Shown: one piece after another, positions 32,358-36,863 of the stretch | Layout: every line of letters starts with the position of its first letter | How positions within the stretch are numbered: the stretch's first letter is position 1 | Origin: Actinomycetota bacterium | GTDB lineage: Bacteria; Actinomycetota; Acidimicrobiia; IMCC26256; PALSA-555 | Assembly: GCA_003140175.1 (NCBI GenBank) | Contig: PLJD01000026.1 | Span: forward strand, 1 to 64,000 | Direction of reading: 5' to 3' | Length of the DNA: 64,000 nt | The notes under the pieces: model-generated | Seen by the model: the letters and a program-made list of their open reading frames with translations, nothing else | What the model was told of the DNA's origin: nothing | The model's database searches: none | Made by a program: the position numbers and the translations under genes

Positions 32358-33122
32358 ATGGCCGTCCTCGTCTTGCTCCTCGGCGTCGTCGTCGCGCTGC
32401 TCGGCGTCTTGGTGGCGGGGCTCCTGCGCAGCCACGCCGAGATCCTCCGGGCCCTCCACGAGCTCGGCGTCGGCCTCGACCCGAACGAGAACGCCCCCCG
32501 GCTGGCGCCGCCCGTGTCGCGCCCATCCACGACCGCTCGGCCGGCCAGCGATCTCTCGGGCGTGACGCCCGCCGGCGACGCGGTCAGCGTCAGCGTCGTC
32601 GACGTCGACCATCCCACGCTCGTCGCCTTCCTCACGAGCGGCTGCACCACCTGCGCCGGCTTCTGGTCCGCGTTCTCCGATCTCCAACGGCTCCGGGTAC
32701 CCGGCGACGCTCGGCTCGTCGTCGCCACCAAGGGACCCGAGGCCGAGAGCCCAGCCCGGCTGGGGAAGTTCACGCCGCCCGACGTGCCCGTGATCATGTC
32801 CAGCGAGGCGTGGACGGACTTCGACGTGCCCGTTGCCCCGTACTTCGCGTACGTCGACGGCCCGAGCGGCACCATCGTCGGGGAGGGGGCCGCGTCGACC
32901 TGGGAGCATCTCCAGAACATCCTCGAGCAAGCGCTCGCCGACGCCGGCATCGCCACCGGCCCGCGCGCTCGACGTCGGCGAGGCCGAACCGACCAGTCGC
33001 GCGAAGCCCAGATCGACGCCGAGCTGATCGGGGCCGGGATCGAGCCGGGCGACCCGAGCCTGTACCCGACCCGCGACGCCGACCTCCAGCGTGGACGGCC
33101 TACCCCGCCCAACGCCTCGTGA
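32358..33122 (+). CDS. MauD-like membrane-anchored thioredoxin-fold protein
   Basis: 254 residues. An N-terminal helix (about 2-22) anchors it; a short stalk follows; the thioredoxin fold (about 60-195) carries the redox pair in S-G-C-T-T-C (about residues 94-97). The extra C-terminal tail is basic and Pro-rich. MauD proteins help form disulfides in the methylamine dehydrogenase light chain; the same role for the Cys-rich protein encoded at 34890-36365 is inferred from the neighbourhood, which also includes a MauE-like gene. First gene of a six-member plus-strand group. Confidence 0.8.
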   Translation: MAVLVLLLGVVVALLGVLVAGLLRSHAEILRALHELGVGLDPNENAPRLAPPVSRPSTTARPASDLSGVTPAGDAVSVSVVDVDHPTLVAFLTSGCTTCAGFWSAFSDLQRLRVPGDARLVVATKGPEAESPARLGKFTPPDVPVIMSSEAWTDFDVPVAPYFAYVDGPSGTIVGEGAASTWEHLQNILEQALADAGIATGPRARRRRGRTDQSREAQIDAELIGAGIEPGDPSLYPTRDADLQRGRPTPPNAS

Positions 33123-33196
33123 GCGCCCTCGACGTCACCATCGCCGGGGTGATTGTCGCCGTCGTCGCCGCGGTGCGTTCCTCGTGGTCGCCGTGA
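33119..33196 (+). CDS. Possible 25-residue membrane micropeptide
   Basis: GTG 33119 overlaps the stop of the MauD-like gene (GTGA). The 25-codon frame gives a short hydrophobic helix flanked by polar ends and stops 9 bases before the next gene. It fills an otherwise unexplained 83-base gap in a tight operon. Very short, so may be chance. Confidence 0.3.
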   Translation: MSALDVTIAGVIVAVVAAVRSSWSP

Positions 33197-33205
33197 GGTG
33201 AGTCG

Positions 33206-33805
33206 ATGCTGGCGAGCATCAACCCGCTCGGGGAGCGGGCCCGCAACACCCGATGGGGTCGCACCGTGTCCTGGTACCTGGCCGGTTCCCTCGCGGGCGG
33301 CGTCGCGGTCGGCGCAGCCGCGGGCGGGCTCGGCGCCGCGCTCCGCCTGGTGGCCGCACCATCCGCGCTCGTGGTCGGCCTCGCCGCGCTCGGAGCCGCC
33401 GCGGTCGGGCTGGCCCTCGACCTCCACCTCGGCGGCCTCCCAGTGCCCACCGTCCGACGTCAGGTCAACGAAGACTGGCTGGCCCGCTACCGGGGCTGGG
33501 TGTACGGCAGCGGCTTCGGATTCCAACTCGGACTCGGCGTCGTCACCATCGTGACCACCTCGACCGTGTACCTCGCATTGGCGCTCGCCGTCCTCGCCGG
33601 GTCCGTACCGGCAGGCATCCTGATCGGAGCGACCTTCGGCCTCGTGCGCGCCGCCCCGATCCTCGCGATGGCCAGAGCTGACAACCCGGCCCGCGTGCGG
33701 GCCGTCCTGCGCCGCGCCCACGACACCGCCCGGCCAGCCAAGGCCCTCGCCCTAGGCTGCCTCGTCATACTCACGGCCGCGAGCCTCGCGGCCGTCCTCC
33801 TCTGA
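33206..33805 (+). CDS. Polytopic membrane protein of the Mau-like operon
   Basis: 199 residues with about five hydrophobic segments (roughly 25-50, 52-72, 98-118, 120-145, 175-198). One loop carries R-Q-V-N-E-D-W-L-x-R-Y-R-G-W-V-Y. No Cys pair is present in the membrane helices, so it is not an obvious CcdA/DsbD electron carrier. Family not recognised. Its place between MauD-like and MauE-like genes suggests a part in maturation or anchoring of the Cys-rich product. Confidence 0.7.
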   Translation: MLASINPLGERARNTRWGRTVSWYLAGSLAGGVAVGAAAGGLGAALRLVAAPSALVVGLAALGAAAVGLALDLHLGGLPVPTVRRQVNEDWLARYRGWVYGSGFGFQLGLGVVTIVTTSTVYLALALAVLAGSVPAGILIGATFGLVRAAPILAMARADNPARVRAVLRRAHDTARPAKALALGCLVILTAASLAAVLL

Positions 33806-33814
33806 GGCCACGCC

Positions 33815-34363
33815 ATGCCGCAGCTCCAAGCCCACGGCCTGACCGTGCAGACACCCAAAGGCTGGGAAGGCCGCATCTTTCGCCGCGCCCAGCAAGGCGA
33901 GCTCGGCGCACAAGCCGAAGTCCCCGGCCCCCCCGCGCCACCCGGCGGGCAGACCTACCCGGTCCTGCACGTCGCCACCATCCCCCTCGCTCCCACCGTC
34001 GCCGACTTCGCCAGCGACGCCGTCGAAGCGCTGGGGCCCACCGACGCCCTCGTCGTCCTGAAGGAGTATGCGCCGACCGAAGCGACCAAGCCCCTGTTCG
34101 CGTCGCCTGGCCTCCCGACCAGCATCGACCCCGACGCCTTCAACCCCTCGGTCCTGAACCGGCTGATCGCAGGCCAAGCCGGGCTCCAGCGGTTCTTGAA
34201 CGCGAACAACCGGGCCTTCTGCCTATACATCGTGCTCGGCGGCTACCAGCGCCGCCACGACGTCGTCCCCGGCGTCAACACCGTGCTCAGCTCGGTCCGC
34301 ATCGATCCGGGGACGGGGCCGACCTCGGTGCCCTCCACCCCGACGACAGCACCGCCGCCATGA
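33815..34363 (+). CDS. Hypothetical soluble protein of the Mau-like operon
   Basis: 182 residues, 9 bases after the membrane protein. The sequence is alpha/beta in character: the N-terminal G-W-E-G-R-I-F-R segment, a V-L-H-V-A-T strand and a R-A-F-C-L-Y-I-V-L-G-G-Y block (one Cys) near the C-terminus, then a Thr/Pro tail. No signal peptide. Its stop overlaps the MauE-like start (ATGA). Function unknown. Confidence 0.7.
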   Translation: MPQLQAHGLTVQTPKGWEGRIFRRAQQGELGAQAEVPGPPAPPGGQTYPVLHVATIPLAPTVADFASDAVEALGPTDALVVLKEYAPTEATKPLFASPGLPTSIDPDAFNPSVLNRLIAGQAGLQRFLNANNRAFCLYIVLGGYQRRHDVVPGVNTVLSSVRIDPGTGPTSVPSTPTTAPPP

Positions 34364-34893
34364 CGATCGCGGCGGGCCCCTTCGCGATCGCCGCGACCCT
34401 CTTGGTGGTCGCGGGCGCGTTCAAGGCGGCCCGGCCCGCCGACACCGCCAACGCCCTCGGCGCCCTCGGCGTCCCCGCCCCCCGGCTCCTGGTCCGCGCC
34501 GGCGCGGTCGTCGAGTGCGCGATCGGACTCGCCGCGCTCATCTCGGGCGACGCCATCAGCGCGACACTCGTCGGGCTCTCCTACGTTGTGTTCCTCGTGT
34601 TCGTGCTCGAGGCGCTTCGCCGTCACGCCCCGATCTCGAGCTGTGGGTGCTTCGGGAAGGTCGACACCCCGCCGAGCTGGCTGCACGTCATCGTCAACCT
34701 GGGCTCGGTCGCCGCCAGCGTCGCTGTGGTGCTCCAGCCCGGTGCGGGCCTCCTCGCCGCCGTGCGCAGCCAGCCGCTGAGCGGCGCGCCCTACCTCCTC
34801 CTCGTGGGAACCGGTGCGGGCCTCGCCCTGCTCGTCCTGTCCGCCCACGTCCGAAACCTGGCGCTCGTGCGCCAACCGCAGGTGGCCCGATGA
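34360..34893 (+). CDS. MauE/DoxX-like redox membrane protein
   Basis: 177 residues with four main hydrophobic helices. The conserved S-S-C-G-C-F-G motif (about residues 92-98) of MauE-type proteins sits in a loop between helices 3 and 4. In methylamine-using bacteria MauE and MauD are needed to build the disulfide-rich light chain; here the gene overlaps both neighbours (ATGA at each end), so it should be made together with the MauA-like protein. An electron or disulfide relay between this protein and the MauD-like thioredoxin is the likely role. Confidence 0.85.
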   Translation: MTIAAGPFAIAATLLVVAGAFKAARPADTANALGALGVPAPRLLVRAGAVVECAIGLAALISGDAISATLVGLSYVVFLVFVLEALRRHAPISSCGCFGKVDTPPSWLHVIVNLGSVAASVAVVLQPGAGLLAAVRSQPLSGAPYLLLVGTGAGLALLVLSAHVRNLALVRQPQVAR

Positions 34894-36365
34894 CCCGGCT
34901 GTCCGGTGGCACCGCGTGGGGAAACTGGCTCGTGTCCAAGACCAGCGGGATGCTCGATGCGAAGCTCAGTCGCCGCAGCTTCATCGCGCGGACCACTCTT
35001 CTCGGCACGGCCGTCGCCGCCACCGGCTGCGCGGTGGTCACCCAGCCCGGCTCCCCCTACACCCGGGTGACCGACTGCTCCGGCGGCCTCTGCACCGACG
35101 GCTACACGGAGTTCTGCTGCGTCATCAACGAGGGCGTCAACGCCTGTCCGCCGAACTCGTTCCCGGGCGGATGGTGGCGCGCCACCGGCTCGATCTACTG
35201 CCTGACCGGCACCCGCTACTACATCGACTGCATGCAGGACTGCTGCGGGCCCAACCAAGGTGACGGGTTCTGCGCCAGCTGCCTCCCGTGCCGCTGCGCG
35301 GTGAACTGCAACACCCGAAAGGTCTACTGCAACTACTTCCGCTACGGACAGTGCATGGAAGAGATCGGAATCACCGGGCCGATCGCCTGCCGGGTGGTGA
35401 CGTGCACTCCCCCATACGACCTGAACATCGGCTGCTCAGCGTCGGACGCCGTTGACAACGCCACCGCCAACCACAACGCCGACTGCGCCGCCTACACCCC
35501 GCCGCCGCCCCCGCCCCCGCCCCCGCCAGCCGTCATGCCCGCGAGCGCGTCGGCCATCGCCGTCGGCGGCCTCCCAGTAGTTGCCTCCCGCGGGTCGGAT
35601 GGGGCAGCGTACGCGAACTCGTTCAACGGCACTGGATGGTCGGGCTGGCTTCCGCTCGGCGGGGACGTGACGTCTCGGGTGGTCCTCGCCGGTCTGGGCT
35701 CGGCCTGGTGGGCAGTCACGCGCGGCGGCGATGATGCGGTCTGGGTCCAGACGGCCACAAGCGGAACGTGGGGAGGCTGGCAGTCGCTGGGAGGTTCCGC
35801 GTCGTCGGATCCGGCCGTGGTCGTCGATTCCGCGGGAACGCTGTGGGTGTTCGTCCGAGGCTTCGACGACGCGCTGTGGGTGCAGTCGGCGACTGGCGGA
35901 ACCTGGGGAGGCTGGCAGTCACTGGGCGGCAACGTGACGTCGGACCCCGCGGCGGCGATCGACGCCTCGGGGAATCTCTGGGTCGCCGTGCGCAGCGGGG
36001 CCAACGCGGTCTACGTGATCTCGCGCAGCGCGGGTGGATCGTGGGGAACGTGGTCCGGGCTCGGCGGGACGGCCACGTCCGACCCGGCGATCGTGGCGAC
36101 GGGCAACGGCACGGTGTGGGTGTTCGCCCGAGGCGTCGACGACGCGTTGTGGCTGCAGTCGTCGAGTGGCGGAACTTGGGGAGGCTGGCAGTCGCTCGGT
36201 GGCTCGCTCGACGACGACCCGGCGGCCGCGTCCGGCACCACGCTGTGGGTCTTCGCGGTGAGCGAGGACCAGGCCATGTACTGCCGGGAGCTGAACGCCG
36301 GAGCCTGGAGCGCCTGGGCGAGCCTGAGCGGGAGCTTCGCGCCAGTCCGGGGCGCCACCTCCTAA
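34890..36365 (+). CDS. MauA-like Cys-rich protein fused to a WxxW-repeat domain
   Basis: 491 residues. A twin-arginine signal (R28-R29-S-F-I) and hydrophobic stretch end at Cys47. Residues 47-200 hold 21 Cys in a pattern like the methylamine dehydrogenase light chain: C86-P-P, C104, D-C118-C119-G and a C147 that follows the position of the second cofactor Trp. That Trp is Tyr146 here; two Trp (95, 96) lie near the first cofactor site. A ten-proline linker (204-213) leads to residues 220-485, which contain six W-x-x-W-x-x-L-x-G repeats about 45-50 residues apart, resembling beta-propeller lectin domains. The protein is likely exported folded by Tat. True methylamine dehydrogenase activity is unlikely without the second Trp and the MauB and MauG partners. 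Function unknown. Confidence 0.82.
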   Translation: MTRLSGGTAWGNWLVSKTSGMLDAKLSRRSFIARTTLLGTAVAATGCAVVTQPGSPYTRVTDCSGGLCTDGYTEFCCVINEGVNACPPNSFPGGWWRATGSIYCLTGTRYYIDCMQDCCGPNQGDGFCASCLPCRCAVNCNTRKVYCNYFRYGQCMEEIGITGPIACRVVTCTPPYDLNIGCSASDAVDNATANHNADCAAYTPPPPPPPPPPAVMPASASAIAVGGLPVVASRGSDGAAYANSFNGTGWSGWLPLGGDVTSRVVLAGLGSAWWAVTRGGDDAVWVQTATSGTWGGWQSLGGSASSDPAVVVDSAGTLWVFVRGFDDALWVQSATGGTWGGWQSLGGNVTSDPAAAIDASGNLWVAVRSGANAVYVISRSAGGSWGTWSGLGGTATSDPAIVATGNGTVWVFARGVDDALWLQSSSGGTWGGWQSLGGSLDDDPAAASGTTLWVFAVSEDQAMYCRELNAGAWSAWASLSGSFAPVRGATS

Positions 36366-36416: not shown

Positions 36417-36863
36417 GTGGAGCTCGTGGCGGGGATGCTCGCGTTTGGTCTCGTCCTGGTGGTCGGAGCGATCCTGGTCGTGCGCGAGGCCGGCCGAGTG
36501 GCCAAGGCACCGCCGCCGGCACTCTTTGACCCCGACGACGCCTACGACTACGTCGTCGAGCGGCTCACCGACGAGGTGGCGGCGACGCTCACCCCCGCCG
36601 ACGTACGCAGGATCTTGGACTTCGAGGTCGAGTTTCTGGAGGGCAAGCGCGTCTCCGGAAACGGATCCGGCACCGATCCCGGCCCGACGGTCTTCGGTGG
36701 GACCGAGACCGTCACGTACATCGTCGAACGATCGGCGGCGACCGGCGAGGTCTACCTCCCCGAGCAGGTCCAAGCGGTCGTCGACACCCAGATCGACTAC
36801 CTCCGAGGGATCGGCGCCATCGGCCCCGCCGAAGACGCCGCTGGGGAATCGCCTCCGACCTGA
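36417..36863 (+). CDS. Membrane-anchored hypothetical protein, 148 residues
   Basis: GTG 36417, 51 bases after the MauA-like gene. One N-terminal transmembrane helix (about 2-22), then a soluble alpha/beta domain with F-D-P-D-D-A-Y-D-Y-V and V-E-F-L-E-G-K segments and Y-I-V-E-R. No family named. Probably conserved in related actinobacteria, judging from its regular folded-protein composition. Confidence 0.65.
   Translation: MELVAGMLAFGLVLVVGAILVVREAGRVAKAPPPALFDPDDAYDYVVERLTDEVAATLTPADVRRILDFEVEFLEGKRVSGNGSGTDPGPTVFGGTETVTYIVERSAATGEVYLPEQVQAVVDTQIDYLRGIGAIGPAEDAAGESPPT

What the first reader, a model, noticed from the sequence alone, without database searches (positions are those of the whole stretch)
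32358..36365. MauA-like Cys-rich domain fused to a propeller-like repeat domain, in an operon with MauD- and MauE-like genes
Seen: a Tat-exported protein with 21 Cys in a pattern like the methylamine dehydrogenase light chain, joined by a Pro linker to six WxxW repeats. It is co-encoded with a thioredoxin-fold protein (C-T-T-C), a MauE-type protein (C-G-C motif), a polytopic membrane protein and an unknown soluble protein. Known: MauD and MauE mature the disulfide-rich MauA, whose TTQ cofactor needs two Trp, and the heavy chain MauB is a beta-propeller. Here the second cofactor Trp is Tyr146, and MauB and MauG are absent. Inference: the operon builds a single-chain, TTQ-free relative in which a propeller-like domain stands where the heavy chain would be. 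It could be an adhesin, a lectin or a quinone-like enzyme with a different cofactor.
Basis: partly seen in the sequence, partly recalled or inferred. Interest (0 to 1): 0.85.

Follow-up and report, generated by a model that had tools for sequence, protein, structure and literature searches.

The report
Repurposed Mau maturation operon, surface protein
A gene set that normally builds part of a bacterial amine-burning enzyme appears to have been reused across many Actinobacteria to make a disulfide-rich exported protein that lacks the enzyme's known cofactor site and partner proteins, and that carries interchangeable tails resembling sugar-binding or cell-wall-binding domains.

Summary
32358-36365 encodes five co-directional genes: a MauD-like thioredoxin, a polytopic protein that I identify as MauF-like, a soluble protein of no known family, a MauE, and a Tat-exported protein with a 20-Cys domain, Pro linker and propeller. 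MauB is absent from this genome and 24 others with the family; MauG is absent here and from 23 of those 24. The interpretation needs revision. The propeller is a PLL-type lectin propeller, unrelated to MauB by sequence, and only one of many interchangeable tails: relatives carry LGFP, ricin-B, SLH, FG-GAP, Ig-like or other repeats, or nothing. The constant parts are the Cys-rich head and its maturation genes. The head occurs in 31 of 396 sampled Actinomycetota genomes; MauD-, soluble- and MauE-like genes accompany it in 84-86 of 96 loci, MauF-like in 68. Kinship of the head to MauA is probable, not proven. Most likely: a Mau disulfide-maturation module repurposed to build a TTQ-free surface protein, here tethered or targeted by a lectin propeller. 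The head's activity is unknown.

The parts
32358..33122 (+). MauD/TlpA-like membrane-anchored thioredoxin (GCTTC motif)
   Evidence: TIGR02661 E 2.7e-5, below cut-off; family profile vs Paracoccus MauD hhalign P 1.6e-8; in 86 of 96 loci
33206..33805 (+). MauF-like polytopic membrane protein (DsbD/CcdA superfamily; no CcdA-type Cys pair)
   Evidence: family profile vs Paracoccus MauF hhalign P 6e-12 over 149 columns, score 79.9 vs max 35.8 in 99 hydropathy-preserving shuffles; DsbD_2 in 14 of 30 relatives; in 68 of 96 loci
33815..34363 (+). soluble protein of no known family; no signal peptide or TM seen by eye; nearly invariant Cys
   Evidence: no meaningful Pfam or PDB match with 40 relatives; in 86 of 96 loci
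34360..34893 (+). MauE (CGC motif)
   Evidence: PF07291 53 bits, cut-off 27; hhalign vs Paracoccus MauE P 9e-8; in 84 of 96 loci
34890..36365 (+). MauA-like head fused to PLL-type propeller (491 aa)
34890..35060 (+). Tat signal region; RR at residues 28-29; ATGC lipobox-like motif ending at Cys47 in this protein and its nearest relative
   Evidence: RR invariant in 16 of 16, motif found in 87 of 96; lipobox-like motif
35061..35498 (+). mature Cys-rich MauA-like head, residues 58-203: 20 Cys, invariant W95 W96, R109 Y110 D113, F150 R151 Y152 G153; Q154
   Evidence: AlphaFold2 pLDDT 91.1, pTM 0.86
35499..35534 (+). Pro-rich linker
   Evidence: sequence
35535..36362 (+). PLL-type beta-propeller, six WxxW repeats
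   Evidence: phmmer vs PDB lectins PLL2, PHL, PLL3, PLL: E 1e-43 to 6e-56; repeats

Best explanation
A MauD/MauE/MauF-type disulfide-maturation module, uncoupled from methylamine dehydrogenase, builds a Tat-exported, heavily disulfide-bonded MauA-like head that lacks the TTQ cofactor. The head is displayed at the cell envelope. A C-terminal module that is exchanged between lineages attaches or targets it; in this genome that module is a PLL-type lectin propeller. Proposed steps: the soluble protein acts on the precursor in the cytoplasm (inferred, weakest step); Tat export (motif shown); MauE, the MauD-like thioredoxin and the MauF-like protein form and sort the disulfides (inferred from gene linkage and from the known role of these proteins in MauA production); the tail binds glycan or cell wall (inferred from tail families). 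The head is likely the conserved working part; its activity is unknown.
For: Head, MauD-like, MauE and soluble genes together in 84-86 of 96 loci, many of the gaps being at contig edges, MauF-like in 68, in several gene orders, and no other gene in more than 13 loci. MauF identity, MauE, MauD. Head vs MauA plus Thermomicrobium profile: 28.5, above all 400 column shuffles (max 24.0) including 200 with Cys columns fixed. The top 14 Foldseek hits among 350,542 chains are all TTQ light chains, though weak. Second TTQ Trp lost in all 120; MauB 0 of 24, MauG 1 of 24 genomes, both absent here. Tails: LGFP 18 of 67, ricin-B 3, SLH 1, FG-GAP 2, PLL here; at least 24 tail-class changes on the head tree. 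Cys pairs lost together, 68/136 and 77/199, as expected of disulfides.
Against: No single test makes the head a MauA beyond doubt: PF02975 does not match; one of an earlier 100 column shuffles reached 26.4 against 28.5; TM-scores to the light chains are only 0.19-0.37; covarying Cys pairs do not simply reproduce the MauA disulfides as I recall them. The commonest tail class (GYWxxx repeats, 25 loci) has no known function. No experiment shows surface location, glycan binding or that the maturation genes act on the head.
Confidence: 0.6

Rival explanations
1. The head is a redox enzyme with another protein-derived cofactor, built on the invariant W95-W96 pair with Y110, Y152 or D113 nearby, and the tail only tethers it.
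For: W95, W96, R109, Y110, D113, F150, R151, Y152, G153 invariant in 120 sequences, more than a scaffold seems to need; dedicated maturation genes; MauA kinship.
Against: Second TTQ Trp lost in all 120; no MauG in 23 of 24 genomes nor here; no other gene (cytochrome, cupredoxin, flavoprotein) recurs in more than 13 of 96 loci.
Confidence: 0.17
2. The Cys-rich head is a structural scaffold or anchor, and the swapped tails are the working parts: a platform for display of lectins and adhesins.
For: Tails are exchanged often and several are lectin or wall-binding families; a PLL propeller in this genome is also fused to a subtilisin-like protease.
Against: About a tenth of relatives have no tail yet keep head and maturation genes; LGFP and SLH modules usually anchor rather than act; invariant head residues other than Cys.
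Confidence: 0.17
3. The head is an unrelated Cys-rich domain that acquired Mau-type oxidoreductases independently; the MauA resemblance is convergence of Cys-rich sequence.
For: No PF02975 match; TM-score at most 0.37.
Against: Three Mau maturation families co-occur; shuffles with Cys columns fixed never reach the real score; best structural matches are all TTQ light chains; Thermomicrobium light chains share the GG-WW and CCGP pattern by eye.
Confidence: 0.06

Closest known systems
Methylamine and aromatic amine dehydrogenase light chains (MauA/AauA, PF02975)
   Same: Tat signal after a long n-region, CPPG motif, Trp at the W57 place, Cys spacing, linked MauD, MauE and MauF relatives
   Different: no PF02975 match, second TTQ Trp is Gln/Asn/Arg, no MauB, no MauG as a rule, extra Cys, fused C-terminal modules, TM-score only 0.19-0.37
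MauD/MauE/MauF maturation proteins of the mau cluster
   Same: all three have profile-supported counterparts beside the head gene
   Different: below NCBIfam cut-off (MauD) or without an NCBIfam match (MauF); an additional unknown soluble protein; the client is not a dehydrogenase subunit
PLL/PHL lectins of Photorhabdus (seven-bladed propellers, PMC6943638, PMC5584973)
   Same: strong sequence match of the tail, E 1e-43 to 6e-56
   Different: six WxxW repeats instead of seven blades, fused behind a Cys-rich head; sugar sites not tested
Candidate RiPP clusters with MauE/MauD and Cys-rich precursors in Streptomyces (PMC7794033)
   Same: MauE (and in one case MauD) next to a gene for a Cys-rich product in an actinobacterium without the rest of mau
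   Different: here the product is a large Tat-exported protein, the MauF-like and soluble genes are conserved, and the set is spread through the phylum
Thermomicrobium roseum MauA-like and propeller array (NC_011961.1)
   Same: MauA-like, MauD-, MauE- and MauF-like genes together, no PF06433 match
   Different: PF02975 matches, both TTQ Trp present in the readable copies, propellers encoded as separate proteins

Membership tests
MauA / Me-amine-dh_L (PF02975) | match to the family model over its cut-off | tested here: not met
   none in the window protein, 16 members, own genome or 396 genomes over the cut-off; control positive
MauA / Me-amine-dh_L (PF02975) | two TTQ-forming Trp (W57, W108) | tested here: not met
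   W95/W96 invariant; W108 place is Q115 N4 R1 in 120; assignment rests on Cys spacing
MauA / Me-amine-dh_L (PF02975) | same fold as solved light chains | tested here: inconclusive
   confident model; best 14 PDB hits are TTQ light chains but E over 1 and TM 0.19-0.37
MauA / Me-amine-dh_L (PF02975) | sequence similarity of the mature domain | tested here: inconclusive
   hhalign 28.5 vs max 24.0 in 400 shuffles; P 4e-4; one of 100 other shuffles 26.4
Methylamine dehydrogenase system | MauB heavy chain | tested here: not met
   0 of 24 genomes and own genome; control positive
Methylamine dehydrogenase system | MauG | tested here: not met
   absent in own genome; 1 of 24 relatives has a marginal match
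Methylamine dehydrogenase system | amine oxidation with TTQ | not testable with these tools
   needs enzyme assay and mass spectrometry
MauE (PF07291) | model match over cut-off, CGC motif | tested here: met
   53 bits vs 27; CGCfG conserved
MauD (TIGR02661) | equivalog cut-off | tested here: not met
   23.7 bits vs 188.6; homology supported, P 1.6e-8
MauF | homology to Paracoccus MauF | tested here: met
   P 6e-12, 149 columns; shuffle control
PLL lectin | sequence homology to solved PLL propellers | tested here: met
   E 6e-56
PLL lectin | seven blades | tested here: inconclusive
   six WxxW repeats; blade number not modelled
PLL lectin | fucose or other sugar binding | not testable with these tools
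   needs glycan array or binding assay

The most novel reading that the evidence does not exclude
A phylum-wide actinobacterial surface enzyme with a protein-derived cofactor other than TTQ, built on the invariant Trp-Trp pair of a MauA-like head and matured by MauD/E/F-type proteins plus an unknown soluble factor, without MauG.
Probability: 0.12. Interest if true: 0.88.

Novelty: new variant of a known kind. Interest (0 to 1): 0.6.

Why it matters
MauD, MauE and MauF have been studied as helpers of one enzyme. Here their relatives serve a different client in hundreds of actinobacterial species, in which the TTQ-making MauG and the heavy chain are missing. That separates disulfide maturation from cofactor synthesis by natural experiment and makes it testable. 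The head has no Pfam or NCBIfam match, and its invariant residues pose a clear functional question.

Tried and rejected
Propeller as MauB substitute: rejected. Tyr146 as second cofactor residue: rejected. A first AlphaFold run with 16 sequences failed (pLDDT 36.9); 120 sequences gave 91.1. phmmer/hmmsearch of the head against the PDB found nothing. hhalign of the head against eight MauA sequences alone was not significant. The downstream gene 36417-36863 is not part of the set (2 of 96 loci). Paper searches found no report of this family; only open-licence PMC papers are held.

Full report
WHAT IS THERE. Five co-directional genes lie at 32358-36365, with 4-base overlaps between the third and fourth and between the fourth and fifth. 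They encode a membrane-anchored thioredoxin with CTTC, a polytopic membrane protein, a soluble protein, a MauE, and a 491-aa exported protein. The last has a twin-arginine signal, a domain with 20 Cys, a Pro linker and six WxxW repeats.

IDENTITIES. MauE is over its Pfam cut-off. The thioredoxin is MauD-like but far below the MauD equivalog cut-off; its family profile matches Paracoccus MauD with P 1.6e-8. The soluble protein has no meaningful match in Pfam or PDB even with 40 relatives. The C-terminal repeats are a PLL-type lectin propeller and do not match MauB.

A FAMILY, AND WHAT IS CONSTANT IN IT. The head occurs in 17 of 58 genomes of the order by protein search, one of them a truncated remnant, and in 31 of 396 genomes drawn across the phylum. 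A scan of one genome per species found 263 relatives, nearly all actinobacterial by record title among the 80 shown, including cultured Kineococcus, Acidiferrimicrobium and Aquihabitans. Of 96 loci examined, the MauD-like and soluble genes are found in 86 each, MauE in 84, and the MauF-like gene in 68; the order of the genes differs between lineages. No other gene recurs in more than 13 loci (that clustering used mechanically called ORFs and merged some overlapping ones, so it is coarse). So the unit is head plus four genes.

WHAT VARIES. Of 67 tails scanned, 18 have LGFP repeats, 3 ricin-B, 2 FG-GAP, 2 a Big_7 Ig domain and 1 SLH; a large class has GYWxxx repeats of unknown function, and about a tenth of relatives have no tail. 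My tail classes rest on simple regular expressions with a large 'other' class (24 of 96). With that caveat, the head tree needs at least 24 changes of class, where 8 would do if each arose once. Starred branches alone force several changes in the GYWxxx and LGFP classes. In the window's own well-supported group of four, two have PLL-like propellers, the same-genus relative has none and one has something else.

IS THE HEAD A MauA? PF02975 does not match it, while the model finds MauA in Paracoccus and five places in Thermomicrobium roseum. Against eight MauA sequences alone, profile comparison of the mature domains is not significant. With four T. roseum light-chain-like sequences added, the score is 28.5 (P 4e-4); none of 400 column shuffles reaches it (maximum 24.0), including 200 in which Cys columns stay in place, but one of an earlier 100 shuffles reached 26.4. 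A structure predicted from 120 relatives is confident (pLDDT 91.1, pTM 0.86). Its best 14 matches among 350,542 PDB chains are all TTQ light chains, but with E above 1 and TM-scores of 0.19-0.37. I therefore call the head MauA-like and probably related, not a member of PF02975. The linked MauD/E/F relatives are the strongest argument, and they are indirect.

COFACTOR. In 120 relatives W95 and W96, near the place of MauA W57, are invariant. The place of W108, assigned from Cys spacing (C155-x11-C167 as C109-x11-C121 in Paracoccus; AADH light chains have two residues fewer), is Q in 115, N in 4, R in 1. MauB is absent in 24 of 24 genomes with the family and here; MauG is absent here and has one marginal match in 24. 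TTQ is therefore very unlikely; another modification is not excluded, since W95, W96, R109, Y110, D113, F150, R151, Y152 and G153 are all invariant.

MECHANISM. Shown: gene linkage, Tat motif, homology of three maturation proteins, exchange of tails. From established knowledge: MauE and MauD are essential for methylamine metabolism in Paracoccus, and MauE is thought to act in disulfide formation of the light chain (van der Palen et al. 1997, as cited in PMC7794033). Inferred: the same chemistry on the new head; cytoplasmic action of the soluble protein; envelope or glycan attachment by the tail. Cys co-loss supports disulfides between 68 and 136 and between 77 and 199, which are lost together in 3 and 8 of 120 sequences (related sequences, so not independent events).

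WHAT IS KNOWN ALREADY. PMC7794033 noted Streptomyces clusters with MauE, one also with MauD, next to Cys-rich small products, and proposed that they modify RiPP precursors. I found no paper on the family described here, in a library limited to open-licence PMC papers. The PLL lectins themselves are well described (PMC6943638, PMC5584973).

Noticed in passing
L120 and L129 (Thermomicrobium roseum NC_011961.1, about 478.7-493.2 kb): Five PF02975 matches (one in a frame that looks broken) interspersed with six propeller-like proteins, one of them fused to MauE, plus MauD- and MauF-like genes; both TTQ Trp are present in the four readable copies. No PF06433 match.
   Followed up: partly
L039 (G040:C15, about 42.0-42.7 kb): A same-family genome keeps MauE and the soluble gene, but its head gene is reduced to 50 codons of signal region with the RR pair broken: apparent decay of the client.
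   Followed up: partly
L038 3-2570 and L037 9061-9522 (own genome, contigs C59 and C119): PLL propeller repeats at two contig ends; one follows a subtilisin-like protease with two fibronectin-like domains. The two ends could be one gene split by assembly.
   Followed up: partly
window 35019-35030 (residues 44-47): ATGC lipobox-like motif in the Tat signal of this protein and of L022; the same-genus L023 has VLGC by eye. This subgroup may be lipoproteins, unlike most of the family.
   Followed up: partly
L089: A family member on a contig titled Acidobacteriota is nearly identical in the head to an actinobacterial one (L098): probably misbinned or mislabelled, or a recent transfer.
   Followed up: no
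window 36417-36863: Small downstream protein with a weak match to the three-helix dimerization domain NF046112 (E 0.0016, below cut-off); follows the head gene in 2 of 96 loci and the decayed head in L039.
   Followed up: partly
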